DNA from: an uncultured Schlesneria sp.
GTDB taxonomy: Bacteria; Planctomycetota; Planctomycetia; Planctomycetales; Planctomycetaceae
Assembly: GCA_903834925.1 (NCBI GenBank)
Contig: CAILLA010000244.1
Coordinates: 1-64,000, forward strand
Direction: 5' to 3'
DNA length: 64,000 nt
Below the pieces are notes generated by a model, which made no database searches, was not told where the DNA came from, and was given only the letters and a program-made list of their open reading frames with translations. Both the position numbers and the translations under genes were made by a program. This document shows, piece by piece, positions 12,120 through 62,541 of this stretch. Positions within the stretch are counted from its first letter, which is position 1. Each line of letters begins with the position of its first letter.

Positions 12120-12479
12120 GGAAAAACAACCTCCTGCGCGATTCGACGAACACGGAATTAAGCCCTCCATTTCTGGATGGCTCGCTCGTCATCAAGAAAG
12201 CATTTCGATCAGCTTTCAACTGGGGCACCAACAACAGACTGTCCGCACAGTGCTGCCACGTCGGTCTAACCGCAGCTTGAGTCGGAGATTAACGCGATCC
12301 CGGATTTCGTTTTAAGAATTTTTTCCGCAAATCCGAGGTGGTGACCACCGAGAAGATTCGGCGAACGAAAACTCCCCTCTGATCCCGGCTACCTGATTTG
12401 TTAAAGCATGTTTACACAACATTCACGAGCCTATTTGATCTTTTTAGGGTCAATAAATGTACTTGTGTTTACATTCTTT

Positions 12480-18453: not shown

Positions 18454-19404
18454 ATGAAATCGCCCATCACAAGACGAGTGTTTTGTCGTTCGATGGGGAG
18501 CGGCTTCGCTTTTGCCGCCCTACCCCAAACGTTCGCACAAGTTCTCAAAGATCGTCCGGAAGGTTTGTCTCTGGGGATCGGCAATTACGGCATGCAGTCG
18601 TACAAGGCCAACGAGGCAATCCGTTTGATTGCGGACCTGAAGTATGACGCAATCGAATTGACCGTTATGCCGGAATGGGATTCTTCGCCGGACAAGCTGA
18701 CGGGCGAACGACGTCGCACAGTGCGTCGGATGCTGGCTGATACCGGACTTGCTTTAACTTCGCTGATGGAAAACCTGACACCATCGGTAACAGATGCCGA
18801 ACACCAGAAGACTCTTGAGCGTCTTAAGCTGGCGGCAGAACTGGGGCAGGATCTTGCACCGGATTCGCCTCCCTTGATTCAGACGGTTTTAGGGGGTGGT
18901 GATTGGAGTGAAAAGAAAGAGCTCTTCCGTGATCGACTGGGGGATTGGCGGCGGATTGCCGAGTCGACAAAAACGGTGATCGCGATCAAACCTCATCGTA
19001 GCGGCGCGATGTCGCAACCCGAACAGGCGGCGTGGCTGCTTGAGCAATTGGGATCGTCGCCCTGGATGGGAATGATCTACGATTACAGTCACTACGCGAT
19101 GCGGGGGCTTTCGGTTGCCGAGACGGTCAAAGCGGCCTTTCCGACAACGGTTCAGATTGTCGTGAAAGACGTGATGAAAAAAGGAGATCAGTTCGAGTTT
19201 GCTCTTCCTGGCGAAGCAAACACGTTCGACCATGCAGAAATTCTGACCGCCTTTTACAAGTCGGGTTATCGTCGAAGTGTCTGTTGTGAAGTGAGTTCCC
19301 AGGTCTTTCGACGTCCAGTTTACGATGCCGCCGCAGCAGCCAAATCCTGTTACGACTTTATGAGCCGCATTTTCGAGAAGGCGGGAATTCCGCGCCCGCG
19401 ATAA
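18454..19404 (+). CDS. Secreted xylose-isomerase-like TIM barrel protein
   Basis: A 316-residue sugar phosphate isomerase/epimerase-family protein. The N-terminus TRRVFCRSMGSGFAFAALP is a twin-arginine-type signal, so export as a folded protein is likely. The barrel begins at LSLGIGNYGMQSY. Metal- and substrate-region motifs are YDAIELTV near residue 67, AIKPH near 176 (where many family members have ENH), GMIYDYSHYA near 207 and CCEVSS near 275. The change of E to K in the AIKPH strand suggests a non-standard metal site. Planctomycetes carry many such proteins in sugar catabolism. It is monocistronic, with a repeat-containing spacer downstream. Confidence 0.75.
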   Translation: MKSPITRRVFCRSMGSGFAFAALPQTFAQVLKDRPEGLSLGIGNYGMQSYKANEAIRLIADLKYDAIELTVMPEWDSSPDKLTGERRRTVRRMLADTGLALTSLMENLTPSVTDAEHQKTLERLKLAAELGQDLAPDSPPLIQTVLGGGDWSEKKELFRDRLGDWRRIAESTKTVIAIKPHRSGAMSQPEQAAWLLEQLGSSPWMGMIYDYSHYAMRGLSVAETVKAAFPTTVQIVVKDVMKKGDQFEFALPGEANTFDHAEILTAFYKSGYRRSVCCEVSSQVFRRPVYDAAAAAKSCYDFMSRIFEKAGIPRPR

Positions 19405-19497
19405 CTTCTATCGGCTGGGCCACAACTTTCAAACGAACTCATTTTACAATAGGCAAAACAATCTCACTGGACAGGATCAGTACACCGACAAGAAGCC

Positions 19498-19893
19498 TTA
19501 TTCTTCTCTCCAAGGTCGAACAGATTCAATATCATCGATTGAAAAGGGGCCGAATTCTGTCGATTTGGCAGCAAGAGAGTCGTAACCCCAGAGGATCAAT
19601 TGTCCGCGTTGACTTTTTCGCGAATCGGGGAATCCTTGAAACCTGCGACCATCCTTGAGCAGTACTTCGACTTCGGTGGTTTCTTCGATACCGAGGCTTT
19701 CGTGGACCAGATCGGGAAATCTGGCCCAGGCCCAGGCCCACAGCGTTTTGTTGGCGTCGACTTTGCCGGCGATATCAACCCAGTCAGGCTCGGCCTTGAT
19801 AAGGTCCGCACGACGGGCCTGCTGGCACCAGGGTCTCAGGACATCGTTTAGCCAACTCTTGCGAGATGTCACAAGTTCTTCGAACGAAATCAT
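19498..19893 (-). CDS. Conserved-looking hypothetical protein
   Basis: A 131-residue soluble protein that I do not recognise. It is rich in tryptophan and charged residues (DWVDIAGKVDANKTLWAWAW, then TTEVEVLLKDGRRFQGFPD and GQLILWGYDSL). The later part reads like a small beta-barrel or SH3-like domain. The ATG at 19893 (MISFEELV) follows GAAAG; the open frame to 19956 is probably not translated. It is divergent from the PSD1 gene, with a repeat-rich spacer between. Confidence 0.6.
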   Translation of the reverse strand: MISFEELVTSRKSWLNDVLRPWCQQARRADLIKAEPDWVDIAGKVDANKTLWAWAWARFPDLVHESLGIEETTEVEVLLKDGRRFQGFPDSRKSQRGQLILWGYDSLAAKSTEFGPFSIDDIESVRPWREE

Positions 19894-19957
19894 GAAGTTT
19901 TCTTTCAACGGACATTTATCGACGGAAATTAGAACTAGGTGGCACTTTTCATTCACA

Positions 19958-48185: not shown

Positions 48186-48881
48186 ATGAGAATCTGTCTG
48201 TGTGTTTGCCTGTCTGTGATTGTCATGGCATCTAGTGCCGGTTCGGCATCGGCCGGTCTGGTGATTTCCACACCAACGGGGCTTAACCCCGGCGATCATT
48301 TCCGAATCCTGTTTATCACCTCCGGTACCACTACTGCGACGTCGTCAGTGATCAGCAATTATGACACTTTTGTTAATACCGACGCCAACGGTGCGACTTA
48401 TAACGGGTCAGTGATCTCTTGGAAGGCCATCGTTTCGACCCCCACCGTCAACGCCATCGACCATATTGGTGTCACGGGTGATGCGGTCTATCTCGTTGAC
48501 GGGACAGAAGTGTCTTCCACTGACGGAACATCGGGCTTATGGTCAGGCGGATTGGCTAACCCACCCAACGAGTACCTGGACGGGACATCACCAAGTGCCA
48601 CAATCTGGACAGGCACCAACCCAGATGGATCCGGAGACGGTTCTCATGCTTTGGGCGGTAGTGATCCCAACAACATCACGGTTGGCTACAGCGCGCTCGC
48701 AGATTATGGTTGGATTTCCAACGACTATGCTACCCCTTCCAGCACCTTCAGTCTTTACGGGATTAGTAGTGACCTCGTCGTGCCTGGCGCAACCACCGTC
48801 CCCGAACCATCGACCGCCGTACTGGCAGCACTCGGTGCCCTGGCCGGCCTGACATATTCATTCGCTCGCAAGCGGAAGTAA
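48186..48881 (+). CDS. PEP-CTERM sorting-signal protein
   Basis: A 231-residue secreted protein. It has a signal peptide (VIVMASSAGSASAG) and a C-terminal sorting tag near 210-231: VPEPSTAVLAALGALAG followed by a helix and the basic end ARKRK. Such proteins are processed by an exosortase (EpsH-like) and are often exopolysaccharide-associated. The middle is Ser/Thr/Gly-rich (GLNPGDHFRILFITSG, then SGLWSGGLANPPNEYL). AAGGA is six bases before the ATG. No exosortase is in this window. Similar hairpin modules lie on both sides. Confidence 0.88.
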   Translation: MRICLCVCLSVIVMASSAGSASAGLVISTPTGLNPGDHFRILFITSGTTTATSSVISNYDTFVNTDANGATYNGSVISWKAIVSTPTVNAIDHIGVTGDAVYLVDGTEVSSTDGTSGLWSGGLANPPNEYLDGTSPSATIWTGTNPDGSGDGSHALGGSDPNNITVGYSALADYGWISNDYATPSSTFSLYGISSDLVVPGATTVPEPSTAVLAALGALAGLTYSFARKRK

Positions 48882-49080: not shown

Positions 49081-49261
49081 AATTCACGCGCGGTCAAGTA
49101 CCGTAACGGACATCCCAAATCAACATCTTCTTCCGGACCAAACGTTCATCCATTCAAAATCCAGTCGATCCACCTGCGTTTTAATCACGTCGTGGGTTGC
49201 GATGGCACCGGGTTGATTGACGGCGGCCTCGCGCTGTTTGGCTTCAGCCAGCACTCGTTTT

Positions 49262-49298
49262 GCTTTCCACTATGGCTTGTCCAAGTGGAAGCGAATTT
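49262..49298. repeat. GCTTTCCAC..GCGAATTT palindromic repeat
   Basis: GCTTTCCACTATGGCTTG then TCCAAGTGGAAGCGAATTT. It recurs at 49340-49376 and, inverted, at 49476-49511, with a shorter copy at 13892. Confidence 0.65.
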
Positions 49299-49339
49299 GG
49301 GAACCAGACACCCACGCTCGTTTCATTGCCATTCGTCTT

Positions 49340-49376
49340 GCTTTCCACCTTGGCTTGCCCAGGTGGGAGCGAATTT
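49340..49376. repeat. GCTTTCCACC..GCGAATTT palindromic repeat
   Basis: Second copy: GCTTTCCACCTTGGCTTGCC then CAGGTGGGAGCGAATTT. Its stem CCACCT/AGGTGG is perfect. Confidence 0.65.
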
Positions 49377-49670: not shown

Positions 49671-49792
49671 AAGAATCCGGGGACTTACGTCGCCCGGCTC
49701 GCTTCGATCAACGCGAGAACGATTTTACTATTCTGAACCCGTCTCGCGACGCGCATGTACCGGCTGTGCCGGGCTTACGTCGCCCGGCTCGC
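49671..49792. repeat. CTTACGTCGCCCGGCTCGC repeats
   Basis: AAGAATCCGGGGACTTAC then GTCGCCCGGCTCGC (49671-49702); the second half recurs at 49771-49792. The same string occurs in a modified form at 19958. Confidence 0.55.
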
Positions 49793-50007
49793 CTCGACTG
49801 TTTTTTTCGTGTTTTTCGTGGTTCAAATTCTTCTCCAGATTGGGTTGCAGGCGAAGCCGGCGCTGGGTACTTCGCGCAATTCATCAATTTCGTTCTCTTT
49901 GCCCGACACATCGTCGCTTGAAAGAGTCGGTTCGTCTGAGGATAGTCATTGAAGTTCGCTCGACCGAAACCGTCTGGTTTAATGACCGCATTTCAGGTTT
50001 GTCTCTC

Positions 50008-50676
50008 ATGACCGTTGCCCGATTCGTTGAGTCACTTTTTAAGGAGGGGCGGGTACGCGTCGGTGAATCGGTTGGCCGTGACGGTCAATTGCGTCAGCCC
50101 ACTGCTGACGACTTGCAGGAAACGAAAGCGATTTTGAAGGAATTCGAATTATCCTATCGGGCCGATCTTTCCGGAGATCCGCCGGCGGTTTCCGACAAAG
50201 CCTTGCTTTGGGGGGCCGTCACCACATTTTATGCCAGCAGTTTTCTCGCTTACCGGGATGCGGGCGAGGATGCCATTCGTCTGGCCTTGTCTGTGCCGTG
50301 CGCTGAAGCGTCTTCACCTTCTGTCTGTTACGCCGTCGATTTAACACTTCGATTTCTGCCTGATCTTTTCCGACTGGCCAGGGCCGCTTCCCCAAACGAT
50401 CCGTTAGTCAGCGTTCTGAGGGAACTCGCGCACCAGTGGCCGTTGTCGTCTGTGGGGATTGCGGGTGTCGAACCGGTCGATCTGTCCTCTTTTCGGGACA
50501 ATGCGTGCCTGTTACAGCTCTATATCGATCGGATCATTGCCACGAAGGATCGATCACGGCTTAATGAACCACTGATCTGCGATAAGATTCGTGCCGCAAT
50601 CGGTCTCCATTCCGAACTGGCTCCTGAATTGTCATCCTATTTAATCACAACAAATCCCCAAACTGGAACTGAATAA
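50008..50676 (+). CDS. First gene of a MoxR-vWA-beta-propeller cluster, unknown helical protein
   Basis: A 222-residue protein starting MTVARFVESLFKEGRVRVGE. It is mostly helical, with no membrane segment or motif I know. A long hydrophobic-polar middle (KALLWGAVTTFYASSFLAYRD) and the C-terminal CDKIRAAIGLHSELAPELSS are visible. Its stop TAA shares its last base with the ATG of the MoxR gene, so they are co-translated. It is therefore part of the MoxR unit, but its role (adaptor or inhibitor) is inferred only from position. The start is uncertain: the open frame reaches back to 49663 but the upstream part is repeat DNA, and the ATG at 50008 lacks a clear ribosome binding site. Confidence 0.75.
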   Translation: MTVARFVESLFKEGRVRVGESVGRDGQLRQPTADDLQETKAILKEFELSYRADLSGDPPAVSDKALLWGAVTTFYASSFLAYRDAGEDAIRLALSVPCAEASSPSVCYAVDLTLRFLPDLFRLARAASPNDPLVSVLRELAHQWPLSSVGIAGVEPVDLSSFRDNACLLQLYIDRIIATKDRSRLNEPLICDKIRAAIGLHSELAPELSSYLITTNPQTGTE

Positions 50677-51866
50677 TGTCATCGGACGGTGAACCGTCGT
50701 CATACAAACTCGGCCAGCGCTTGAACGATGAAGTTCTCGGGCCGATCAAAGCCAGCTTTGTCGGCAAAGACGAAGTCGTCGACCTGCTGGGGATCTGTCT
50801 CGTCGGGGGCGAGAATCTTTTCATTCTTGGCCCGCCAGGAACCGCAAAAAGCGCGCTGGTTCAAGAGTTGGCTGTTCGACTACACGGCCAGATGTTCGAC
50901 TATCTTTTGACCCGGTTCACAGAACCGAACGAGTTGTTCGGCCCGTTCGATATCCGACGCCTGCGAGATGGCGATCTGGTAACGAATACCGAGGGGATGC
51001 TTCCGCGGGCCGATTTTGTCTTCCTGGACGAACTTCTCAATGCCAACAGCGCGATCCTGAACAGTTTACTGATGGTCCTGAACGAGAGAGTTTTTCGACG
51101 TGGTCGTGAAACGTTTTCATTGCCGACGTTAATGGTCGTGGGGGCCAGCAACAGCCTGCCGGAGGATGATGCTCTGGCGGCCTTGTTCGACCGATTCCTG
51201 TTGCGAGTGCGGTGCGACAACGTTCCGACCGAGCGGCTGAGCGACGTGCTTCGCGCCGGCTGGAACCGGGAATTGCAGGGACGTGATCGACCTGTCGGCA
51301 TGCATGTTGACCTGGTCCGTGAACTGCAAAAGCAATTGCGTGACGTGTCGTTGGAAGAGACTCAACCCGTCTATGTTGAACTGGTTCGACGGTTGCGACT
51401 GGCGGGAATCAAGGTCTCGGATCGCCGCGCGGTGAAACTTCAACGGATGGTGGCGGCAAGCGCACTGCTTTGCGGACGAACCAAAACGATCCCCTCGGAT
51501 CTCTGGGTCATGCGCTACATCTGGGATTCGGAAGAACAGCAGGAGGTAATTGCTGCATTGGTCAATAACGCGATCCAAGCAGCTGGAAATACGGATCAAG
51601 CGGGAAGTCATCCGCGCGCCAAAGGCGAGGATGCACCCAACCCGGAATTGATCGCTGTCGATTTGCAACGCATCGCGGGTCGACTGAACGAACAATCGCT
51701 TTCTGATATCGACCGAGCTCAACTTCGTGATGAACTCGGGTTACTGGCATCTCGGTGTGAATGGGTTTCTAACAGTCACCAGAGGGAATTTCTGCGGAAA
51801 GAGATTGAAACGCTGTGGCAGCAAATTGACCAGTCTACGAGTGCGGGATCACCAACGAGGAATTAA
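50676..51866 (+). CDS. MoxR-family AAA+ ATPase of a bpX ternary system
   Basis: A 396-residue AAA+ ATPase. The Walker A motif GPPGTAKS is at residues 52-59, Walker B VFLDELLNANS near 118, sensor 1 GASNSLPEDDALAALFDRF near 160, and the lid follows to about 310. The tail (about 320-396) is helical. This is the MoxR clade that acts with vWA proteins to remodel partners. It is the second gene of a five-gene cluster: overlap of one base with the gene before, six bases to the next. In the predicted conflict systems that I recall, the ATPase, vWA and propeller proteins form the core. The ATPase motifs are intact. Confidence 0.92.
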   Translation: MSSDGEPSSYKLGQRLNDEVLGPIKASFVGKDEVVDLLGICLVGGENLFILGPPGTAKSALVQELAVRLHGQMFDYLLTRFTEPNELFGPFDIRRLRDGDLVTNTEGMLPRADFVFLDELLNANSAILNSLLMVLNERVFRRGRETFSLPTLMVVGASNSLPEDDALAALFDRFLLRVRCDNVPTERLSDVLRAGWNRELQGRDRPVGMHVDLVRELQKQLRDVSLEETQPVYVELVRRLRLAGIKVSDRRAVKLQRMVAASALLCGRTKTIPSDLWVMRYIWDSEEQQEVIAALVNNAIQAAGNTDQAGSHPRAKGEDAPNPELIAVDLQRIAGRLNEQSLSDIDRAQLRDELGLLASRCEWVSNSHQREFLRKEIETLWQQIDQSTSAGSPTRN

Positions 51867-51872
51867 TTCGCC

Positions 51873-52592
51873 ATGCCCGCCGAACCGAAATCGCCGTGGA
51901 CCGTTTGCCTTCCCATTGAGGATGCCGAACACATGGGCAAGCTAAGGCTGATCAAAGGTCTCAGCATTCTCGTTGACGGAACTTCGGTCTGGTTGCGTGG
52001 CGACTACCTGGATGATGAACTGGACCAACGGATTCGGTCCATTCCGAATGCCGTGCGGTTTATGATCCAGGCCAATCGACAATTAACTCGGCCTGGTGAA
52101 ACCGTTCCCTGCGCACAATTGCCTGACGGACTATGGCAGCCCTTGCGAGCCTGGCTGTCAACGAAACTGCCGGTTGCCGGGTTCGCCGCTGAAGCGGGCT
52201 CTGGCGTCATGCTCAAACTCGTTCGTTCATCGAAAAACAGACAGGCGAACCTGATGCTGTCCTCATGGGAACGCTGGCGTGCCTATGCAATCCAGGCACC
52301 TGCGGTTCGGCTGAGTCGATTGGGATTTGCCGTCTCTGAGAATGCTGATGTTCTGATACGCGGAACGCCGTTGCCGCCGATTCCCGGCCATCGATTTATT
52401 GAAGACCATGGTATCATCATCCCGATCGGCTGGCAGTTTGAACCGAATGTCGGATCGGTCATCGTCCGGCAAGTGTTGAAATTGGACGAGACGGTAAAAG
52501 CTCTGTTTTCTGAGGATGGGTCGTTTGAACTTGTACCTGATACGGCGTTTGTTCAAGCGACTCGATCAGCCGTGAGGATGACTCATGGATAA
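51873..52592 (+). CDS. Third gene of the MoxR cluster, small partner protein
   Basis: A 239-residue soluble protein. It contains SVWLRGDYLDDELDQRIRSI near 45, then LTRPGETVPCAQLPDGLWQP near 72. Later come WERWRAYAIQAPAVRLSRL and an isolated PIPGHRFIEDHGIIIPIGW near 170. These features match my memory of the accessory genes found with bpX systems, though I cannot name the exact bpX class. It overlaps the next gene by eight bases, so translation is coupled. No enzymatic motif is visible; it may form a scaffold or regulate the ATPase. Confidence 0.7.
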   Translation: MPAEPKSPWTVCLPIEDAEHMGKLRLIKGLSILVDGTSVWLRGDYLDDELDQRIRSIPNAVRFMIQANRQLTRPGETVPCAQLPDGLWQPLRAWLSTKLPVAGFAAEAGSGVMLKLVRSSKNRQANLMLSSWERWRAYAIQAPAVRLSRLGFAVSENADVLIRGTPLPPIPGHRFIEDHGIIIPIGWQFEPNVGSVIVRQVLKLDETVKALFSEDGSFELVPDTAFVQATRSAVRMTHG

Positions 52593-55467
52593 GAATTTCG
52601 AAGACGCGCTTCGGTATCTGATGCCACCGATTGGTTCATTCTGGCGGTGGGACGATCAAGGGTCGGTCGTTGTCTGGTCGAGCGGTTCAACCATCGCGTT
52701 TCGAGAAGAGTTAGCCAAGGTCTTGAAGCGACTGGCTCCAGGTGGACTTCCGGCGATTGACGCCGTTCTCCTGCTGATCGCAGCGACTCGGGCTTACTGG
52801 GAAACCGATTCCGTCAAACTGCGACAATATCTTTCTCAAAGTGTTACGTTACCGATGCAGGGAGTCTCTATTGATCCTTCGGCAATCCTTTTTAACGGAC
52901 TGGATCGGGTTCACAAATTTCCCGAGCGACTGACCCGAACCCCCGATGCCAAAGGGGACATCGCGGCCATCGTCTTTGAAACCGCTCCACGCTGGGTTTC
53001 CGCTGAAGTTGCACATGTCGTTTGTGAGGTACTCGATAAAAAACTCAACTACGCGATTCCCAGCTTGCCACGATCGGGGAACGCCCGAGATCAAACGACA
53101 AATTCGTTGCTGCATGACTGTGAGCCCTTGAAACAAGGGTTGCATGGATTGACGGAAGAGGCGATTGATTTATGGCGACGAACAGGTCTGTTGTCTGAGC
53201 CGAAACCGGAATTGGTTGACGCGCCGGTCGATCATCTGTCGACTCGGTCATTGCTTTTGCAATTGGCCAACGACGATGAATACGCAGGTTTATCGCGACT
53301 GGCTCGCAATCTGGCGGCTGTTGTCCATTTGCCACGCACGATCACCGAGACCGACGAACTTCCCATGGGAGGCGTTTCCGACATTACCAATCGCGGCACA
53401 CTTGATCGGTTGCTGTTGAGTGAACTGGCTCACGACGATTTGATGCTGGCAACACGACTGGCGTTGAACGAGGCTCTTTATCTGCGGCGCGAGACACCTC
53501 CTGCTTTTCCCCCTAAACAGCGTCACGTTCTCATTGACTGTGGGTTGAGAATGTGGGGCGTGCCACGCCTGTTTTCGGCGGCGGTTGCGCTGTCATTTGC
53601 CGCGACAACAGAACAGGGGGCTGCACTTTGGGCCTATCGAGCCTCGGGGACCGAAATCATCCCAATCGACCTGTCGTCTCGCGAAGGACTGGTTGCTCAT
53701 CTGGAATCACTCGAAACTGACGTTCACCCTGGTCGTTCGCTTGATGAATTTTTCCAGCACGTACGGCAATCAGAATTGTCAGGCGATGTTGTGCTTGTCA
53801 CGACCGAAACCGTTTTGGGTGACCCCGATTTTCAACAGAAGCTCAACGATGCCGATGCTCCCCCGCTCTACCTGGCGACCGTTGATCGAGAGGGGCGATT
53901 TCAGCTCTGGTCCCGTAGCCTACGAGGACGCAAGTGTCATTCGAATTTACAACTTGACCTGGATGTGTTGTTTGAGCCTCCGCCACGTCCATCGAAGAAG
54001 TTGATTCAGTCAGAAATTGACCCAAATCTGCCGGCGATTTTTCACGTCAAACCGTTTCCCTTTCGGTTTCCCTATGGGAACGGTAACGGTTTCAAAAACG
54101 AAGTTCTTTGGAATGTGGCGCTTCGGCAACCCAGCGACTTTGATCCATTTGGCTACGATGAAGAATTCACAACGACTTCTTTGCACATGGACGTTGACCG
54201 ACCCACACGCAAAAAGCTGGAGCGGGGCGTCTTCTTTCTCACCCGAGATCACACGTTACTGCTGTTTGATGAAGCTGATCGAGGTGCATTGCAGATTGGT
54301 GAGAAATTGCCATTTGGTAAATGTCTTTATTCGTGGTCTGGTGATGAAAAGGGATTTTCCTATGCGTTAATTTATCGCGAATCCGACGCCGTGATTTATT
54401 TGTTTTCCATCAACCTGATGAAAAGCGAAGTTCAAGCAGACCCGTTGCCTTCCAGCTATCTCAAACCCGGGGGTTCCCGATCCCCGGTGTTGGGCGCTGT
54501 GGCAAATGGCTCGGTCGTGTTCGTCATCTATCAATCCACGATCGAAGCGTTTGATATCACCACGAAATGCCTGCTCAACCAGACGCACTGCGAAATGGCT
54601 TATAAGGGCCTCAAACAGCGATTCTTTTTTAATTCAGCGATGTGTCACGGCGATGCATGGAACATCCTTTCCTATGATGGCTCTACAATTCAGCTGCAAT
54701 ATGTTCCCCTCGGAAAATTCTTGTCGCAAAGTTCAAAGCTCGCTCTTTTTTATCGCAAAGGGCACGATGGTCCTTTTGCGATTTCAAAAGGGTCCATTAT
54801 CAACCTGACCGAACAGACCGAACGAGTGTTTTTGAACGAGCCGTTTTGGAACCTGGAGGTGTTGGACATTGATGCCAATGGTCGACGTGCCTTGATCAGG
54901 TTTTTTCAGGTAAACAATTCCGTTCCTGGTTATCGGATTGTTGACACGAAAACCTCGCTAACGAAGGTGGTTTCCGTGGCTGATTCGCTTGCCCATTACG
55001 ATGCCCAGCAAACGAACGGTGGATTGATGCCAATGCGTCGCATCACACGTGCGTATGTCGAGGAGGGGCATTTGTGTATCGTCAGCAACCGACATATGCG
55101 GTGGAAATTCGAGGTCAGTAATGACCGCCTGTTTCTGGTAACGTCGTCGAGCACACAGAAGCACAACTTGTCTCAGGAATTTGAGCCCATCAAGCAGGCT
55201 GAGCCTGGGTACTCGTTACGTGTCGCCAAGTGGGCTGATGGAAGTCGACTGTGGATTGATTCACGCGGGCTGATGCATCTCCAAAGTTCGGATCAACTGA
55301 TTCCTGAAGCGACTTTTATGCTCAACGTGAGCGGAGTGGCTGTCTGGACGAGCGATGGGACAATGCATGGTTCGCCTTATTATATTGATCCTTCCCGTCC
55401 ATCAATCTCGGCTGAACAGGTACGTGATTTGATTCTTACGCCATTCATCGAGCGGTTGCGCGAATAG
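52585..55467 (+). CDS. Degenerate vWA domain fused to a beta-propeller
   Basis: A 960-residue soluble protein. The N-terminal 300 residues are unassigned; a conserved-looking segment MGGVSDITNRGTLDRLLLSE then LALNEALYLRRE precedes a vWA-like domain at about 310-450. Its metal site reads LIDCGLRMWG at 317-326, where a normal vWA has DxSxS, so metal binding is doubtful. From about 460 to the end lie repeated beta blades (for example FLTRDHTLLLFDEADRGALQ near 550). The gene overlaps its predecessor by eight bases and ends six bases before the next reading frame. In MoxR-vWA systems the vWA subunit presents the client to the ATPase. Confidence 0.8.
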   Translation: MDKNFEDALRYLMPPIGSFWRWDDQGSVVVWSSGSTIAFREELAKVLKRLAPGGLPAIDAVLLLIAATRAYWETDSVKLRQYLSQSVTLPMQGVSIDPSAILFNGLDRVHKFPERLTRTPDAKGDIAAIVFETAPRWVSAEVAHVVCEVLDKKLNYAIPSLPRSGNARDQTTNSLLHDCEPLKQGLHGLTEEAIDLWRRTGLLSEPKPELVDAPVDHLSTRSLLLQLANDDEYAGLSRLARNLAAVVHLPRTITETDELPMGGVSDITNRGTLDRLLLSELAHDDLMLATRLALNEALYLRRETPPAFPPKQRHVLIDCGLRMWGVPRLFSAAVALSFAATTEQGAALWAYRASGTEIIPIDLSSREGLVAHLESLETDVHPGRSLDEFFQHVRQSELSGDVVLVTTETVLGDPDFQQKLNDADAPPLYLATVDREGRFQLWSRSLRGRKCHSNLQLDLDVLFEPPPRPSKKLIQSEIDPNLPAIFHVKPFPFRFPYGNGNGFKNEVLWNVALRQPSDFDPFGYDEEFTTTSLHMDVDRPTRKKLERGVFFLTRDHTLLLFDEADRGALQIGEKLPFGKCLYSWSGDEKGFSYALIYRESDAVIYLFSINLMKSEVQADPLPSSYLKPGGSRSPVLGAVANGSVVFVIYQSTIEAFDITTKCLLNQTHCEMAYKGLKQRFFFNSAMCHGDAWNILSYDGSTIQLQYVPLGKFLSQSSKLALFYRKGHDGPFAISKGSIINLTEQTERVFLNEPFWNLEVLDIDANGRRALIRFFQVNNSVPGYRIVDTKTSLTKVVSVADSLAHYDAQQTNGGLMPMRRITRAYVEEGHLCIVSNRHMRWKFEVSNDRLFLVTSSSTQKHNLSQEFEPIKQAEPGYSLRVAKWADGSRLWIDSRGLMHLQSSDQLIPEATFMLNVSGVAVWTSDGTMHGSPYYIDPSRPSISAEQVRDLILTPFIERLRE

Positions 55468-55487
55468 GAAGATTGCGTGGTTTCACA

Positions 55488-58406
55488 ATGCAACTTAAAT
55501 TAAAGCTTGTCCCTTTCCATTCAAACACACCTCGACGCGAGACTGTGGCGTGGTTTGTCCGCGGGAACAATCCGCAACAGTGGCTGAGCGAACTAAACGG
55601 CTGGGAAATCCCGCTGGAATCGCTGGACTTGCGCGTGATCCCACAATCGTTTGAGGAGCCAACTCCCATTGGCGTCCTCGTCACACTGAAGGCTGACACA
55701 GTCAATCCTCGATCGAGGACGGGGCATTCATTTCAACCGTCCATTCGGCATGGACAACCCTATGGTCGTGTAGCGGGTCGACTATTTGTTCCAGTCGATG
55801 CCGGTTTTTTTCCTGACGTCAATGCCAACGATCTGTTTTCACTTTTACCTCCCGACGATAGCGAATTCGTGTGGCATCCGTCAGCCGGTCTGTTTCGGAT
55901 TGAACCACTGGAACGACTTCGGATCGTCGATTTGCTGACTGCACCGCCACAGCGACAAACGGATTGGAACTATGCCGCAGCGGGGATTTCGTTTAGTTCG
56001 CGTTTAATCTCGGTCGAACCGAATGCTGCTATAACAGAGAACGACCTCTTCAAAGAAGAGGCCAAAGACATCGGCTCAAAGCCAGATGCGTTGGGCGACT
56101 TGCCACCGACATCTGACGAATGGTTCGGTGGAAAACTGAGCGACTGGACGAAGCCATTGCGAGACGCGATGAAGTCGTTGAAGTCACCGCGCAAACCCCA
56201 GGCACCGGACGATCCGAACAAAGCTGCTCTGACTGGAACATCGGGGTCTGGCAATTCTGTCGCCAACTGGGCCGGTCAAGCGTTTGGCCTGATTGCGGCC
56301 GCCGCCTCACTAGCGGGTAAGGGCCTGGGTGTTGCACTGCTGCCTCTGGTAGCCGCCGGTTCCGTCGCCGGGAAAGCGATGTCAGCGATGGGAGTTCGTT
56401 CGTTTATCGACCAGGTGGCTCGCAATCGAGAGATTGATCGGCTGTTGAATCTCTTAAAGCTTGATCCTGATCGAGCTTTAAGATTCGCAATCTCAATGGG
56501 CGGCGGTGGTGGCCTACATCGCGGAACAGCCAATCCGTCAAACAAACTTGTTGGTCACAATGTTGGTTTTCAATTGGGTCGACTTTCCGGTGGTGTTCCC
56601 GTTGATCGATGGGACATTCCAGCCGTTCAGCAGTACCAGCTGATCCAGCAGTATCGCGAATTGGCTGCGCGGGAAATCCGACTTGGAAGGCATCGACGTG
56701 CGGCCTACATCTATGCTGAACTATTGGGGGATCTCGTTTCCGCTGCCGGCGCGCTGGAGAGTGGACATCATTATCGTGAGGCGGCGATTCTCTACCGCGA
56801 CAAGCTGAAACGGCCTCTCGATGCCGCGAAATGTCTCGAACGAGGGGGGTTGCTGGAAGAAGCTGCCAGCTTGTACCTGGAAATCGGCAAGGTCGAGAAA
56901 GCTGCCGATATCTACGTTCGGCTGGAACAACACGAAAAAGCGGAGCAACTTTTAAGACAGTGCGCAGCGGACTTCGTCTTTCACCGCGATTTTATCAACG
57001 CCAGCCGAGTTCTCTATGACAAGTTAAATGACGTTGATTGTGCAATATCGACGTTGGCGCTCGGCTGGCCCTCGTCTCCCAGCGCACTGATTTGTCTCGA
57101 ACGAATATTTGAACTTCAGGGAAAGCACGCCAGACACGAAGAGGCTCGCACCCTGATCGCGAAATTGCAAAACGAGCCCGTTGAACGACGCATCACAAAA
57201 CTTCTTTCCAAAGGATTATCTGGAGTTGCGATCAACTATCCTGATATCACCGTTCGTGACACAGCCAGCGACGCGACGCGAATCGTTGTAGCGCGTGTTC
57301 TGGCAACTGCTGATCCAACGGAAGCCAACGAATTGTTGGGTGCGATTCGCAAGTTAGCACATCAAGACCGACTCCTCTCACGTGACTGCGATCGATTTGT
57401 TAGAGTACTCACATCGAGACTAAACACAAAACCACAGACAACATCACGGGGAATCAGGCCAACCAATTCGTATTCGTTATCGCTTTACGGCATCAAGTGG
57501 CGAATTGCCAGGGTTGCTGCAAATACTGTCTATGTAGCCGGGTTTGGAAACGATTCACTCGTTCTCCAGCGTTTGAAATGGGACAACCCGCAGGATCAAT
57601 CTCATCGGATAGCGTGGCCGAGTGCCAGAACGGCAACAGACGTGATCCTCGAACCGTTTCCGGACGGCAACAGCCCTGTCATCATCCACCCGATTGGCGT
57701 CGACGTTGAACATCTCCGAGCTCCGAAAAAGATTCTTCAGATGTTTCCGGCCGGCTCACCCGCTTGGGCAACGGCAAACACGGTTGCATTGGCATACTCG
57801 GAAGGGGGCTTTGGCTGGCGAATTGAACAAAATTCCGCGAGTCTGGAAATCGCCTGTTTCAGCCCGCGTGGCGAACCTTTAAATTCGAGACTTATTCCGT
57901 TTCCGCTTTCGATACTCGGAGATTGGAATTCACGCGTCGCATTACTTGTCGTCGAAAACAGGGTGAGAATCGGTCTTGGCAAATATCTTCTCTCAAACAA
58001 AGAGAACCAGCTATTCTCCGGCCCAAAAAATGGTTTTGAGAATTGGGGGCAGTTGAAAGGGGCACTCAAGCTGGAAGCAGCCATTCAAACTTTGATCGGT
58101 TCTCCAAACGGTCTTATGATCGCGTTGTTTGAAACAGGTGGACTCTTAATGGCGGATCACGACCATTCGCGCATTGCGGGGAATCTTGAGGCACCGAAGG
58201 GAACTTTTTTGAGTGACGATCGATTTGTCATCGCAGGGATTGGAGAAGTCCAAGCCTACGAAGTGATCAACTCTCGCCCCGAACTCATCGGCAAACATGA
58301 GCTTGGCTTTGTGCCGATCTCGGTCACAAAAACCGACAAACTGAGCGAGTTTGCCGTTTTCGGCGAGTATGGCGAGATCGAAACGTTTGTGGTTGAATCG
58401 GGTTGA
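55488..58406 (+). CDS. Large bpX-type protein: unknown N-domain, Ala/Gly-rich hydrophobic stretch, solenoid, beta-propeller
   Basis: A 972-residue protein. Residues 1-190 form an unassigned domain with VTLKADTVNPRSRTGHSF and FFPDVNANDLFSLLPP. About 262-302 is a Gly/Ala-rich hydrophobic segment (FGLIAAAASLAGKGLGVALL then PLVAAGSVAGKAM), possibly membrane-active. A TPR-like helical solenoid covers about 390-560, with repeats such as RRAAYIYAELLGDLVSAAGA, YREAAILYRDKLKRPLDAAK and LEEAASLYLEIGKVEKAADI. The end (about 640-972) is a beta-propeller. The ATG at 55488 is used; a TTG at 55473 is an alternative with AGGAAG too close. It is the last gene of the cluster. Confidence 0.78.
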   Translation: MQLKLKLVPFHSNTPRRETVAWFVRGNNPQQWLSELNGWEIPLESLDLRVIPQSFEEPTPIGVLVTLKADTVNPRSRTGHSFQPSIRHGQPYGRVAGRLFVPVDAGFFPDVNANDLFSLLPPDDSEFVWHPSAGLFRIEPLERLRIVDLLTAPPQRQTDWNYAAAGISFSSRLISVEPNAAITENDLFKEEAKDIGSKPDALGDLPPTSDEWFGGKLSDWTKPLRDAMKSLKSPRKPQAPDDPNKAALTGTSGSGNSVANWAGQAFGLIAAAASLAGKGLGVALLPLVAAGSVAGKAMSAMGVRSFIDQVARNREIDRLLNLLKLDPDRALRFAISMGGGGGLHRGTANPSNKLVGHNVGFQLGRLSGGVPVDRWDIPAVQQYQLIQQYRELAAREIRLGRHRRAAYIYAELLGDLVSAAGALESGHHYREAAILYRDKLKRPLDAAKCLERGGLLEEAASLYLEIGKVEKAADIYVRLEQHEKAEQLLRQCAADFVFHRDFINASRVLYDKLNDVDCAISTLALGWPSSPSALICLERIFELQGKHARHEEARTLIAKLQNEPVERRITKLLSKGLSGVAINYPDITVRDTASDATRIVVARVLATADPTEANELLGAIRKLAHQDRLLSRDCDRFVRVLTSRLNTKPQTTSRGIRPTNSYSLSLYGIKWRIARVAANTVYVAGFGNDSLVLQRLKWDNPQDQSHRIAWPSARTATDVILEPFPDGNSPVIIHPIGVDVEHLRAPKKILQMFPAGSPAWATANTVALAYSEGGFGWRIEQNSASLEIACFSPRGEPLNSRLIPFPLSILGDWNSRVALLVVENRVRIGLGKYLLSNKENQLFSGPKNGFENWGQLKGALKLEAAIQTLIGSPNGLMIALFETGGLLMADHDHSRIAGNLEAPKGTFLSDDRFVIAGIGEVQAYEVINSRPELIGKHELGFVPISVTKTDKLSEFAVFGEYGEIETFVVESG

Positions 58407-58632
58407 TTCAGCAGCGTTCACCGATGAATCTGTCGCCATCGTTTAATCTGCAGCCGAAGGCACAGGCGGATTCACATTCAGCTGATCACTTCAAATGTCA
58501 TTGTGCCCACCTGACGCCAATCCACTAACGAGAAATGACGCCCCGGCTGACGGCAAACCCGCCGCTCAACTCCCGCTTCTCTTCGAGGCGCGGTGAAACG
58601 CTGGCGAAAGCCAAAAAGGGAGCGTTTGCTTG

Positions 58633-58661
58633 TTGCTGGCAGGTCGTGTCGCTCCTATAAT
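58633..58661 (+). promoter_or_regulatory. Sigma-70-like promoter of the PAS-GAF-receiver gene
   Basis: TTGCTG (58633-58638) and TATAAT (58656-58661) are separated by 17 bases. The GTG at 58704 follows at 42 bases. This is a near-consensus promoter and supports the GTG start rather than an upstream reading at 58593. Confidence 0.65.
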
Positions 58662-58703
58662 CTTGTCTGGTTTCATGTGAGTGAGCAGGGAGAGCTACGC
58701 CTC

Positions 58704-60419
58704 GTGTCCACGACTCCTCGGATATTGGTACTCGGCGCGAAAGAAGACGTCGGCCGTTTGGTGTGGGAGTCGGTGCGGACATCCGAATCCCTCGTTTGGG
58801 CGGGTGACGACGCTTCGTGGCTGACCAAATCTCACGAGACCGATTTTGCCGCAGCGATCGTGCTGGGCGAGTCTCTGCAACATCTGCCGACACTGCTTGC
58901 ACTGGAAAGTGTGGTCAAGCATCTCCCGGAAGGGATCGCGGTTCTGGATGTCGAATTGAAAATCGAGTGGTGCAATGATCGGTTCACCGAACTCACTGGT
59001 CGTACGGCTCAGGGGCTTCCGGCACCGATCGGGTTAGGTTTCGACGAAGCATTCGCCAATCCGCGGATCGTTGGACCTGATTTTGCACCTTTCCACACGG
59101 CGATCGGGTCAGGCATGACCTCTCGGACAAAGTATCGGACGGGAGAATCAACTTACATTGATGTTGTAGCGGCCCCGGTCTATGCCTCGGGTGGCGAATT
59201 TCCATCGATGGTCGTGGTAACGGTTCGTGACGTTTCGGTCGAGCATCAGCAGGGCGAAAAGTTGACCGCCATCCATGAAGCAGGCCAGGATCTCGGCGAC
59301 ATTGCTCCTGAAGATCTGGTCACGATGTCAGTCGACGCTCGAAAAATGTTGCTTCGCGAAAAGATCATTCTCTACACCAAAGATGTTTTGAATTTTGAAA
59401 CGATCGAAGTCCGTTTGCTCAACGAAAAGACGAATCGGCTTGAACCGTTGCTGAACGTTGGAATGTTGGCTGAAGCGGCCGAGCGAGAGCTGACGGCTTC
59501 ACCGACCGGCAATGGCGTCACCGGCTATGTCGCTGCGACCGGCAACAGTTATCTTTGCCGGGATACATCAAACGATCCGTTGTATATCATGGGTGTCGCG
59601 GGGGCGAGAAGCTCCCTGACCGTTCCCATCAAGCGGCACGAACGTGTGCTGGGAACATTCAACGTTGAAAGCACGCACGCCAACGCCTTTTCGGAACAGG
59701 ATCAGCAGTTCTTGGAATTGTTCTGCCGTGATCTGGCGGTCGCGCTCAACACGCTGGAGTTGCTGGTATTTGAACGGGCAACCGTCGCATCGGAAAGTGC
59801 GACCGTTTTGCTGCGTGAAGCGGCACGACCTGTGGATGAGATTTTAAATGACATCGCCTGGCTCAAAAATAAATTCGTCGGGTTCGATCCTCAGGCGACT
59901 GAGCGACTGCAACGAATGCTGATGCAGACTCGTACGATTCGACAATTGATTTTCGGAATCGGCGAGAAAGTTGCGCCCCAGGTTTCAGCCCCGATGGCAG
60001 CGCTTTCTCCGTCAAATCCAAAACTTCGTGGCAAGCGGGTTCTGATTGCCGACGGCGACGAATCGGTTCGAGCCGCAGGTCACGAATTGCTGGCAAGGTT
60101 CGGCTGTGAGGTCGAGACCGCCCATACGGGCGAAGAAGCGATACTGATGATTCGCAGTTTTCACTATGACGTCGTCCTTTACGATGCGGAAATGACGGAT
60201 ATTCACCTGATTGACGCACTCGGAATGATTCGAGCGATTAATACGGATATTCCGGTCATTCTGATGAAGGGGTTTGGTTACGACGGTGCGCACCGGATGG
60301 TGAAGGCTCGCCAAATGGGATTCAAACTGGCGCTCTATAAACCGTTTCGTCTGGATCTTTTGCTAACGGAATTAGACAAGGCGTTTACTCCGCCGGGCGA
60401 AACCCCATCACCAGGTTGA
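58704..60419 (+). CDS. PAS-GAF-receiver regulator with a degenerate kinase core
   Basis: A 571-residue sensor protein. A short N-terminal receiver-like stretch (RILVLGAKEDVGRLV) is followed by a PAS domain (about 80-200: VVKHLPEGIAVLDVELKIEW) and a GAF domain (about 225-390: TGNGVTGYVAATGNSYLCRD). A helical hairpin with LLREAARPVDEILNDIAWL near 405 stands where a histidine kinase has its phosphorylated His; no His and no ATPase domain are present. A C-terminal receiver follows (about 445-565), with ADGDE, the phospho-acceptor in LYDAEM and a KP lysine; the usual Thr is replaced by Lys in ILMKG. So it senses and receives phosphate but cannot itself be a kinase. A promoter precedes it. Confidence 0.8.
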   Translation: MSTTPRILVLGAKEDVGRLVWESVRTSESLVWAGDDASWLTKSHETDFAAAIVLGESLQHLPTLLALESVVKHLPEGIAVLDVELKIEWCNDRFTELTGRTAQGLPAPIGLGFDEAFANPRIVGPDFAPFHTAIGSGMTSRTKYRTGESTYIDVVAAPVYASGGEFPSMVVVTVRDVSVEHQQGEKLTAIHEAGQDLGDIAPEDLVTMSVDARKMLLREKIILYTKDVLNFETIEVRLLNEKTNRLEPLLNVGMLAEAAERELTASPTGNGVTGYVAATGNSYLCRDTSNDPLYIMGVAGARSSLTVPIKRHERVLGTFNVESTHANAFSEQDQQFLELFCRDLAVALNTLELLVFERATVASESATVLLREAARPVDEILNDIAWLKNKFVGFDPQATERLQRMLMQTRTIRQLIFGIGEKVAPQVSAPMAALSPSNPKLRGKRVLIADGDESVRAAGHELLARFGCEVETAHTGEEAILMIRSFHYDVVLYDAEMTDIHLIDALGMIRAINTDIPVILMKGFGYDGAHRMVKARQMGFKLALYKPFRLDLLLTELDKAFTPPGETPSPG

Positions 60420-60663
60420 ATCGGGGTTTTGAAATCGGATTTCCGAAACCGACACCCATTTTGCAATGCGAAAAACCTTAAGGCTCATTCAGAACCGGAA
60501 CCGTTTGTTGAACTGTTGCGAACGAGTGATATACTTGGATCGTGGAGCCGAAAAGATCTTCATTGGAAGCGTTTTCGACGAGGAAACTTGATTGAGCAGC
60601 TTTTGTCGGGCTGCATCCCCACACGCCTATCAGTACCTGGTCGCCTTGCGAGTGAGACCGTCA

Positions 60664-61839
60664 ATGACTGCCGCTGTAACTGCTTCTACTTCTGCCTCGG
60701 ACAAAGAAGCCTCCGCCGACAAAACGGCGGCGCGTGGATTAAAGGGCATCATCGCCGCAGACACCAAGATCTGCGATGTGGACGGCGACCTTGGGAAACT
60801 GATCTATCGTGGCTACAACATCCACGATCTTGCTAAAAACAGCTCGTTTGAAGAAACGGCTTATTTGTTGTTCAAGGGGGAATTGCCCAGTTCAAGCGAA
60901 CTGGCTGAATTCAACAAGGTCCTGGTTCATCATCGCGAAATCGAACCGCCGGTTCTCGCATTTCTGAAAACACTTCCCAAAACAACTCCGCCGATGACCG
61001 CGCTCCGGTCAGCGGTCTCGATGTCAGGGGTTTACGATCCCATCGCTGAAGACGATTCGCCCGAAGCGAACTTCGAAAAATCAATTCGATTGACAGCCGA
61101 AATGACGACAATTGTCGCCGCCATTCAACGAATTCAGGCAGGACTTGAGCCAATCGCTCCGCGTCAGGATCTCAGCCATGCTGCCAACTTCATGTATATG
61201 CTGAACGACAAAGTTCCATCGAAAGACGCCGAAAAAGCGATGGACCTGATTCTGATTCTTCACGCCGAGCATGCATTAAACGCCAGTACGTTCGCTGCTC
61301 GAGTCATTGCCGCCACACTCTCCGACATTTACTCGGCAGTGACGGGAGCCATCGGTGCCTTGAAAGGACCGCTGCACGGAGGTGCCAATACCGAAGTTCT
61401 CAAAACCCTGATCGAAGTTGGCGATGTCAAAAACGTCGTTCCCTGGGTCGAAGCGGTCCGAGCCAAGAAGGGGAAATTCATGGGGTTCGGACATGCGGTC
61501 TACAAAGTCGAAGACCCTCGTGCGATTCATCTGAAAGATCTCTCGCGTCGGTTAGGTCTCGAAACCGGAGACACCAAGCTTTACGACATTTCGATCGCCA
61601 TGGAACAGGCCGTCATCTCGTCCATCCACAAGAACTGTAACGTCGATTTCTATTCCGCCAGCTTGCAACACTACATGGGAATCCCGGGAGACATGTTCAC
61701 ATGCGTGTTTGCCGCGAGCCGCATCGTCGGCTGGTGTGCTCATATTCTCGAGCAACTGAGCGACAACAAAATCATTCGCCCATCGTCAAACTACATCGGC
61801 CCCGCAGAACGTCCCTATCTTGCTGTCGATAAACGATAG
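60664..61839 (+). CDS. gltA: Citrate synthase
   Basis: Condenses oxaloacetate and acetyl-CoA. A 391-residue protein of the short (Gram-positive or archaeal-type) group. It has catalytic residues His in PLHGGANTEVL near 236 and FGHAVYKVEDPRA near 278, and Asp in NVDFYSASLQHYMGIP near 330. IRGYNIHDL-like residues (YRGYNIHDLA) lie near 42. The ATG at 60664 (MTAAVTAS) is used; the N-terminal 25 residues are low-complexity. An alternative start at 60592 lacks a ribosome binding site. A REPIN sits in the spacer to pyrE. Confidence 0.95.
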   Translation: MTAAVTASTSASDKEASADKTAARGLKGIIAADTKICDVDGDLGKLIYRGYNIHDLAKNSSFEETAYLLFKGELPSSSELAEFNKVLVHHREIEPPVLAFLKTLPKTTPPMTALRSAVSMSGVYDPIAEDDSPEANFEKSIRLTAEMTTIVAAIQRIQAGLEPIAPRQDLSHAANFMYMLNDKVPSKDAEKAMDLILILHAEHALNASTFAARVIAATLSDIYSAVTGAIGALKGPLHGGANTEVLKTLIEVGDVKNVVPWVEAVRAKKGKFMGFGHAVYKVEDPRAIHLKDLSRRLGLETGDTKLYDISIAMEQAVISSIHKNCNVDFYSASLQHYMGIPGDMFTCVFAASRIVGWCAHILEQLSDNKIIRPSSNYIGPAERPYLAVDKR

Positions 61840-61865
61840 AGCTTTGCCTCGGCTCGTTATTTCCT

Positions 61866-61958
61866 GTGCCACTGTATGACCGTCTTCGGTCATGCAGTGT
61901 TCTTGGAACGGTAGAAGGAAAAGACACTGCGTCTCCGAAATCTCCGATGAAATGGCAC
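61866..61958. repeat. REPIN-like hairpin pair
   Basis: A 93-bp element between gltA and pyrE. It begins GTGCCACTGTATGACCG and ends ATGGCAC. Hairpin 1 has the TCTT loop; hairpin 2 is degenerate in this copy (TCTCCGAAATCTCCGATG). Confidence 0.8.
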
Positions 61959-61983
61959 CGAATCCTAATTGAGAAGAAACCTA

Positions 61984-62541
61984 ATGACTGACCGCCAGCG
62001 ATTGATCGAACTGTTTCTTGCTCGCGCTTTGAAATTTGGCGACTTCACACTCGCGTCAGGCAAAAAATCGACTTATTACCTGGATGGAAAGCAGATTTCC
62101 CTGCATTCAACGGGACTGCGTCTGGTCAGCCAGGGGCTGTTCGACCTGTTGAGCGATGTGGACTACTCGGCAATTGGCGGAATGACAATTGGAGCCGATC
62201 CCATTATCGGTGGAGTCCTTGTCGTCGCTGGGGAAAAAGGCCGCTCGCTCGATGGGTTCCTCGTGCGGAAAGAGCCAAAGGGGCACGGGACACAGCGTTA
62301 CATCGAAGGTCCGGTTGTGCCTGGTTCAAAAGTTGTCGTGATTGATGACGTTGTGACGACGGGTGGTAGCGCTTTGCAGGCGATTGAGCGCATTGAAGAG
62401 TTCGGTTGCCAGGTCGTTTGTGTCGTCGGGATCGTTGACCGAAAAGAAGGTGGTGCTGCCAACTTCGCGGCCAAGGGAGTGCCGTTTCGATCACTCTTAA
62501 CGATTGAAGATTTTGGAATCGCTCCCCCGGCTGGTCATTAA
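61984..62541 (+). CDS. pyrE: Orotate phosphoribosyltransferase
   Basis: Joins orotate and PRPP to orotidine-5'-phosphate. The protein has 185 residues, the usual length. Type I PRTase features are visible: FTLASGKKSTYYLDGKQISL near 20, GMTIGADPIIGGVLVVAG near 68 and the PRPP loop VVIDDVVTTGGSALQ near 121. The ATG at 61984 (MTDRQRLIELF) is preferred to the TTG at 61969, which lies in the repeat flank. The next gene starts 51 bases after its stop on the same strand. Confidence 0.95.
   Translation: MTDRQRLIELFLARALKFGDFTLASGKKSTYYLDGKQISLHSTGLRLVSQGLFDLLSDVDYSAIGGMTIGADPIIGGVLVVAGEKGRSLDGFLVRKEPKGHGTQRYIEGPVVPGSKVVVIDDVVTTGGSALQAIERIEEFGCQVVCVVGIVDRKEGGAANFAAKGVPFRSLLTIEDFGIAPPAGH

What the first reader, a model, noticed from the sequence alone, without database searches (positions are those of the whole stretch)
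50008..58406. Five-gene MoxR-vWA-beta-propeller (bpX) ternary system
Seen in sequence: five leftmost-to-rightmost genes with overlaps of 1 and 8 bases and gaps of 6 to 20, encoding a small helical protein, a MoxR AAA+ ATPase, a small partner, a vWA+propeller protein and a solenoid+propeller protein. Established knowledge: computational work predicts ternary conflict systems that combine MoxR, vWA and bpX propeller proteins in bacteria with complex life styles, including planctomycetes. Inference: this unit is such a system and would act as an NTP-driven checkpoint that releases an effector after a stress or invader signal. No obvious nuclease or toxin is present, so the large solenoid protein, or something elsewhere, may be the effector. 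I know of no experimental role.
Basis: partly seen in the sequence, partly recalled or inferred. Interest (0 to 1): 0.8.

Follow-up and report, generated by a model that had tools for sequence, protein, structure and literature searches.

The report
Five-gene MoxR-vWA beta-propeller cassette
A planctomycete carries a complete copy of a published but experimentally untested five-gene machine, an ATP-driven motor with propeller-shaped partner proteins, whose exact gene order is kept across several bacterial phyla although many close relatives have lost it.

Summary
Pfam assigns bpX4, bpMoxR, bpX2, bpX0+bpX1 and bpX3. This is the published beta-propeller MoxR-vWA system (Kaur et al. 2020, PMC7159879), so it is a new member of a known kind, with no experimental role found. 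New here: (i) the core is five genes, not three: 43 of 48 roomy loci among the 80 best bpMoxR relatives keep the same five-gene order and strand. (ii) It is accessory: 9/15 genomes of the genus, 28/377 good planctomycete genomes; it is inherited mostly vertically and lost repeatedly. (iii) The vWA-like domain has no Pfam match and no MIDAS site: Asp is kept in 68/68, but Arg/Lys replaces the second Ser in 65/68. (iv) No effector, no recurring neighbour family; the N-terminal domain of the third component is not hypervariable here. Best reading: a RavA-ViaA/NorQ-NorD-like ATP-driven remodelling machine with its own scaffold client (bpX3). The conflict-system reading is possible, but nothing found here specifically supports it.

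The parts
49908..50007 (+). Conserved leader of the cassette with a sigma-70-like promoter match TTGAAA-17-GATAGT (49918-49946)
   Evidence: nucleotide homology to three other species of the genus starts at 49908/49911, upstream sequence differs; promoter-like match (a consensus match only).
50008..50676 (+). bpX4 protein, 222 aa; invariant WPLS motif
   Evidence: Pfam PF19920 4.4e-53; alignment.
50676..51866 (+). bpMoxR AAA+ ATPase, 396 aa; P-loop GPPGTAKS, Walker B FLDEL
   Evidence: Pfam PF20030 2.3e-96, AAA_5, AAA_lid_8; nearest solved structure RavA 1.4e-55.
51873..52592 (+). bpX2 protein, 239 aa
   Evidence: Pfam PF19918 1.3e-61; present in 75 of 76 roomy loci.
52585..55467 (+). vWA-like/propeller protein, 960 aa
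   Evidence: bpX0 and bpX1; AlphaFold model pLDDT 87.
52684..53169 (+). bpX0 domain (residues 34-195)
   Evidence: Pfam PF19915 2.5e-13.
53290..53502 (+). Most conserved segment of the protein (residues 236-306, GGVSDITNRG.LDRLLLSELA.DD...EALYLRRE)
   Evidence: omega 0.035-0.052.
53518..53952 (+). vWA-like alpha/beta domain (residues 312-456) with degenerate MIDAS (D318, G320, R322) and a C-terminal beta-hairpin with invariant G437
   Evidence: Topology; residue counts; weak profile match to 13 true vWA domains, E 0.0018, probability 15%; no Pfam vWA match for the window protein.
54103..55194 (+). Beta-propeller (residues about 507-870)
   Evidence: VIA-align Z 12.4, rmsd 5.0, 251 aligned.
55219..55458 (+). 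bpX1 domain (residues 879-958)
   Evidence: Pfam PF19917 1e-18.
55488..58406 (+). bpX3 solenoid/propeller protein, 972 aa
   Evidence: Pfam PF19919 7.8e-36; AlphaFold model pLDDT 82.
55497..55943 (+). bpX3 N-terminal alpha/beta domain (residues 4-152)
   Evidence: no solved relative by sequence profile.
56088..56393 (+). Low-confidence Gly/Ala-rich hydrophobic linker (residues 201-302), borderline membrane segment
   Evidence: Kyte-Doolittle 1.69; a segment over 1.6 occurs in 16 of 53 aligned proteins.
56622..57425 (+). Helical TPR-like solenoid (residues 379-646)
   Evidence: its first half is the most conserved part of bpX3.
57450..58400 (+). WD40-like beta-propeller (residues 655-971)
   Evidence: VIA-align Z 24.1, rmsd 3.1, 280 aligned.

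Best explanation
This is a complete chromosomal copy of the published beta-propeller MoxR-vWA system. Most likely it makes a five-protein remodelling machine of the RavA-ViaA / NorQ-NorD kind. Inferred steps: (1) bpMoxR forms an ATP-driven ring; (2) the vWA-like domain of the 960-aa protein docks on the ring, possibly by its C-terminal beta-hairpin (residues 428-456, invariant Gly437), as proposed for the 'finger' of MoxR-associated vWA domains; (3) its degenerate MIDAS cannot hold a metal in the usual way, and a conserved Arg/Lys in place of the second serine, or the attached propeller, takes over client binding; (4) the dedicated client is the co-encoded bpX3 protein (alpha/beta domain + linker + TPR-like solenoid + WD40-like propeller), a scaffold that is loaded, opened or released by ATP hydrolysis, in some species at a membrane; (5) bpX4 and bpX2 are obligatory partners of the motor half. 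Shown: gene content, families, predicted folds of the large proteins, conserved order, conserved residues, accessory distribution. Not shown: complex formation, ATPase activity, the client and the biological purpose.
For: System-specific Pfam families in all five proteins; P-loop variant described for the system; RavA as nearest solved relative of bpMoxR; 43 of 48 roomy loci with identical five-gene order and strand; bpX2 in 75/76 and bpX4 in 60/68 loci with room; folds of the two large proteins; D318, W324, G325 and G437 in 68/68, R/K322 in 65/68; the split copy in G012 breaks at the bpX2/vWA border and keeps both halves, [bpX4-bpMoxR-bpX2] and [vWA-bpX3], which suggests two working modules; literature on MoxR/vWA motors: PMC9976466, PMC9489729.
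Against: No direct evidence that the five proteins bind each other or that bpX3 is the client. The vWA assignment is weak by sequence and my fold searches were filled by the propellers, so the vWA part was barely tested by structure. Genome G020 has bpMoxR and bpX3 on separate contigs, and G007 keeps only vWA-bpX3 with a truncated vWA N-terminus.
Confidence: 0.55

Rival explanations
1. Conflict (immune) checkpoint, as predicted by Kaur et al. 2020 and the first reader: the MoxR-vWA motor holds an effector in check and releases it on an invader or stress signal; bpX3, with its N-terminal domain and membrane segment, would be the effector.
For: Published prediction by analogy with VMAP and other ternary systems (PMC7159879); patchy presence: 9/15 genomes in the genus, 28/377 good genomes in the phylum; decay products; a TM-like segment in some bpX3 orthologues.
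Against: [quoted passage not shown] A TM-like segment is in only 16/53. No PADLOC match of weight, no recurring defence neighbours (no formal control), no full-length relative in phages and one in plasmids. The set of five is fixed, where conflict systems usually swap effectors.
Confidence: 0.28
2. Maturation chaperone for a client encoded elsewhere in the genome (as NorQ-NorD or CbbQ-CbbO), with bpX3 as an adaptor rather than the client.
For: Known MoxR-vWA pairs serve an enzyme or membrane complex (PMC9976466; PMC9489729); slow evolution and mainly vertical inheritance with loss.
Against: Known pairs are often encoded beside their client (own knowledge), and no neighbour gene family recurs next to the cassette across taxa.
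Confidence: 0.25
3. Membrane-coat or scaffold module: bpX3 (solenoid plus propeller) polymerises on membranes and the motor assembles or strips it, in analogy with coat proteins that combine propellers and solenoids.
For: Architecture of bpX3 and fold matches of its propeller to IFT and BBSome-type propellers among many others.
Against: WD40-like propellers match everything of that fold; the domain order is solenoid then propeller; a membrane segment is not general.
Confidence: 0.1

Closest known systems
Beta-propeller-containing MoxR-vWA ternary system (Kaur, Burroughs, Iyer, Aravind, eLife 2020, subsystem 4, PMC7159879; Pfam bpMoxR, bpX0-bpX4)
   Same: All components: MoxR with GXXXTAKS P-loop, vWA-propeller protein with N-terminal helical and C-terminal beta domain, third component with TPR and propeller, extra helical and mixed alpha/beta proteins.
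   Different: Here and in 43/48 of the best-matching loci the two 'additional' proteins (bpX4, bpX2) are constant parts, the N-terminal domain of the third component is not hypervariable, and a membrane segment is optional.
RavA-ViaA (E. coli MoxR ATPase and vWA partner; PMC9489729)
   Same: bpMoxR is nearest in sequence to RavA among solved structures; MoxR plus vWA pair.
   Different: ViaA has no propeller and there are no bpX proteins (own knowledge); the vWA-like domain here matches no vWA family in the window protein.
NorQ-NorD (MoxR/vWA chaperone of nitric oxide reductase; PMC9976466)
   Same: ATP-driven MoxR ring with a vWA partner, proposed finger insertion into the pore.
   Different: NorD uses an intact MIDAS to bind its client; here the MIDAS is lost.
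FtsH-type MoxR-vWA ternary system (Kaur et al. 2020, subsystem 3)
   Same: Divergent vWA, propellers and the same P-loop variant are described for both.
   Different: No FtsH-like two-domain AAA+ protein, no ubiquitin-like conjugation genes in this cassette.
Rea1/Midasin with Ytm1 and Rsa4 (PMC6624252)
   Same: An AAA+ motor with a MIDAS domain pulls on assembly factors that are WD40-propeller proteins (own knowledge; abstract).
   Different: Eukaryotic single-chain motor; its ligands are UBL domains bound by an intact MIDAS. I found no evidence of a UBL in bpX3 (one search gave no match). Analogy only.

Membership tests
Beta-propeller MoxR-vWA system (Kaur et al. 2020) | MoxR ATPase of the bpMoxR family | tested here: met
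   PF20030 2.3e-96, 321 bits against cut-off 27. Ordinary MoxR proteins also pass the cut-off, but at 60 bits or less in this genome.
Beta-propeller MoxR-vWA system (Kaur et al. 2020) | P-loop variant GXXXTAKS in the MoxR | tested here: met
   GPPGTAKS in P0002; G52..K58 invariant in 16 homologues; feature described.
Beta-propeller MoxR-vWA system (Kaur et al. 2020) | vWA domain followed by a beta-propeller in one protein | tested here: inconclusive
   Propeller met. vWA: right topology in the model and weak profile match E 0.0018, probability 15%, but no Pfam vWA match in the window protein and no vWA in the PDB profile search.
Beta-propeller MoxR-vWA system (Kaur et al. 2020) | N-terminal helical and C-terminal beta domain on the vWA component (about 62% of members) | tested here: met
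   bpX0 and bpX1, helices over 1-310 and strands to 922.
Beta-propeller MoxR-vWA system (Kaur et al. 2020) | Third component with TPR and propeller | tested here: met
   bpX3 family, helical repeats 379-646 and propeller 655-971.
Beta-propeller MoxR-vWA system (Kaur et al. 2020) | Highly variable N-terminal region of the third component (described as a mark of conflict systems, not as a strict requirement) | tested here: not met
   Residues 1-200 keep 69-71% identity in close and 28-43% in distant relatives, more than the propeller, omega 0.17-0.19.
Beta-propeller MoxR-vWA system (Kaur et al. 2020) | Membrane-spanning segment in the third component | tested here: inconclusive
   Window copy borderline (1.69); over 1.6 in 16 of 53 aligned proteins.
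Anti-phage defence / conflict system | Match to known defence proteins | tested here: not met
   No PADLOC match at E below 0.01 for the five proteins; the library may not hold this system, so this is weak.
Anti-phage defence / conflict system | Sits among other defence genes | tested here: inconclusive
   Of 190 flanking genes only a few match PADLOC models, mostly kinase-like or SWIM/WGR/HEAT-type; none recurs across taxa; no formal control set.
Anti-phage defence / conflict system | Protects against an invader | not testable with these tools
   Needs a challenge experiment.
Classical vWA with MIDAS (DxSxS...T...D) | MIDAS residues | tested here: not met
   Asp 68/68, first Ser position G37/T23/S6, second Ser position R50/K15, late Asp position D in 9/68.

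The most novel reading that the evidence does not exclude
The vWA-like domain is a metal-free clutch: an Arg/Lys conserved in 65/68 orthologues sits where MIDAS holds Mg, so the motor grips an acidic client, perhaps bpX3, by a built-in cation instead of a metal; and the system is a fixed five-part machine made of two separable modules, not an effector-swapping ternary conflict system.
Probability: 0.25. Interest if true: 0.55.

Novelty: new member of a known kind. Interest (0 to 1): 0.4.

Why it matters
The five-gene set is kept in strict order across Planctomycetota, Bacteroidota, Verrucomicrobiota and others, yet no experiment is known to me or was found in the library. The comparison makes its role testable: it gives the constant gene set, cultured hosts (Hymenobacter, Chitinophaga, Pedobacter), the residues to mutate (P-loop, D318, R322, G437) and natural presence/absence pairs (G012 with, G011 without). 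It also weakens two points used to call it a conflict system.

Tried and rejected
Known vWA relation by sequence: Pfam scan of 68 domains gave one weak VWA_3 hit at 0.11; PDB profile search gave only chance matches. PDB profile searches with bpX2, bpX4 and the bpX3 N-terminus found no relative, so a UBL-like N-terminus as in Rea1 clients stays a guess. Fold searches of the two whole models were filled by propellers, so the vWA, bpX0 and bpX3-N parts were barely tested. A sixth conserved gene: flanking ORFs of 57 complete cassettes show no family recurring broadly (at most 7 loci, by single-linkage clusters); the strand of the next genes is near random. Recent mobility as a cassette: dS of the cassette (0.78-0.97) is close to that of the neighbouring core RND gene (0.75) for window versus G002, and the cassette tree broadly follows a core-gene tree, so recent transfer in this clade is unlikely. 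bpMoxR as a marker of the system was rejected because ordinary MoxR proteins pass its cut-off (control genomes ring); bpX2 was used instead (control genomes: 0 hits).
Full report
Observation. Searches confirm five + strand genes at 50008-50676, 50676-51866, 51873-52592, 52585-55467 and 55488-58406, with overlap 1, gap 6, overlap 8 and gap 20. Pfam gives bpX4, bpMoxR, bpX2, bpX0 plus bpX1, and bpX3, each far above its cut-off. NCBIfam adds only a sub-threshold RavA match for the ATPase and PADLOC nothing of weight. The nearest genomes with names are Schlesneria (Planctomycetaceae).

Known kind. The gene set is subsystem 4 of Kaur et al. 2020 (PMC7159879): MoxR, vWA protein with a C-terminal propeller, third component with TPR and propeller, with further helical and mixed alpha/beta proteins in a subset. 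That paper predicts a role in conflict and states that no conventional effector is present. No experimental paper on the bpX system turned up. 'bpX' names the flanking and accessory domains of the system; the propellers are separate parts of genes 4 and 5.

Distribution and order. bpMoxR relatives were fetched from GTDB genomes (best 80 of at least 499, so biased to near relatives). Own profiles for the five proteins show that 43 of 48 loci with enough room hold all five genes in the same order and strand; three lack only a recognisable bpX4, one has bpMoxR-bpX2 only and one bpMoxR only. They span Planctomycetota, Bacteroidota, Verrucomicrobiota, Wallbacteria and single Krumholzibacteria and Acidobacteria bins; the bpMoxR tree follows phyla closely (7 changes against a least possible 5 and 34 by chance). 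bpX2, which rings in none of 14 control genomes, is in 9 of 15 genomes of the genus and 28 of 377 good planctomycete genomes, one copy each.

How it is inherited. In four close species the DNA homology of the unit runs from 49908/49911 to 58446 (in one of them the aligned stretch ends earlier), starting at a conserved promoter-like leader, while the flanks differ in at least one of them. Synonymous divergence of the cassette (0.78-0.97) matches that of the neighbouring core RND pump (0.75) for window versus G002, and omega is 0.05-0.28 for whole genes. A core response-regulator tree and the cassette tree agree in outline. G012 carries [bpX4-bpMoxR-bpX2] and [vWA-bpX3] on two contigs, G007 only a vWA-bpX3 remnant with a truncated vWA N-terminus, and G011, the sister of G012, neither bpX2 nor bpX3. 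The simplest reading is old, mainly vertical inheritance with repeated loss.

Anatomy. bpMoxR is nearest to RavA among solved structures (1.4e-55) and keeps P-loop GPPGTAKS and Walker B. The 960-aa protein (model pLDDT 87) has a helical N-terminal part, an alpha/beta domain of vWA topology at 312-456, a propeller at about 507-870 and bpX1. The vWA-like domain is not found by Pfam in the window protein; a profile comparison with 13 true vWA domains of the same genome is weak (E 0.0018, probability 15%) but colinear, with D318 on the first MIDAS Asp. Over 68 orthologues D318, W324, G325 and G437 are invariant; the two MIDAS serines are mostly G/T and R/K, and the late Asp is mostly gone. The segment 236-306 just before it is the most conserved. 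The 972-aa protein (pLDDT 82) has a bpX3 alpha/beta domain, a poorly ordered Gly/Ala-rich linker, a TPR-like solenoid and a clear WD40-like propeller (Z 24.1). Its N-terminal domain is not hypervariable and a TM-like segment is present in only 16 of 53 aligned proteins.

Surroundings. In the window the cassette lies between an RND efflux pump with a PEP-CTERM gene and a GAF/response-regulator, citrate synthase and phosphoribosyltransferase block. In G001 and G002 that downstream block is next to genes that lie at 18.4-20.0 kb in the window, so the window is rearranged here. Around other cassettes no gene family recurs widely, and PADLOC matches are few and scattered. bpMoxR has one full-length relative in plasmid records (Hymenobacter) and none in phage records.

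Mechanism. From NorQ-NorD (PMC9976466) a MoxR ring is proposed to take a vWA 'finger' in its pore while MIDAS holds the client; RavA-ViaA acts at the inner membrane (PMC9489729). By analogy the cassette would be a motor with bpX3 as its dedicated client or adaptor. The loss of MIDAS with a conserved Arg/Lys means that client binding must differ; a built-in cation is one possibility. All of this is inference; the conflict reading remains open at about 0.28.

Noticed in passing
window 49252-49376 and 49681-49797: Intergenic repeats upstream of the cassette: two 47-nt copies (85% alike) with inverted partners near 49491, and two 27-nt copies (93%).
   Followed up: partly
L052:11956-12012, 12153-12228, 12648-12708 (genome G012, next to its split cassette): Short intergenic sequences with dozens of similar copies across G011 and G012, like a REP or MITE family; possible agents of the cassette split.
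   Followed up: no
window 48186-48881: Protein with a PEP-CTERM sorting motif between the RND pump and the cassette.
   Followed up: no
window 18454-19956 and 58593-62541: These two blocks are neighbours in genomes G001 and G002 but nearly 40 kb apart in the window, so a segment with the RND pump and the cassette lies between them here.
   Followed up: partly
L213:7676-13408 (G012), L215:7662-13337 (G007): vWA-bpX3 halves without the motor genes beside them; in G007 the vWA gene matches only from residue 102 on and the genome has no bpX2.
   Followed up: yes
L051:4233-7240 (G014): bpX3 is split over two frames between solenoid and propeller: decay or sequencing error.
   Followed up: no
L081:17503-21035 and L093:17576-21114: Two co-directional genes directly behind bpX3 in two related planctomycete loci; the first (611-612 aa) has no Pfam match in either locus, nor has the second (567 aa) in L081 (the second gene of L093 was not scanned alone). 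A possible lineage-specific extension of the cassette.
   Followed up: partly
L142:17025-18278: A gene with a PycTM-like 2TM effector domain follows bpX3 in the same direction in a Saprospiraceae bin; the only effector-like neighbour seen.
   Followed up: no
downstream flanks in alignment A13 (members not resolved): Two flanking genes match SWIM/WGR/HEAT '_XIII' PADLOC models, recalled from memory as part of another MoxR-vWA gene cluster.
   Followed up: partly
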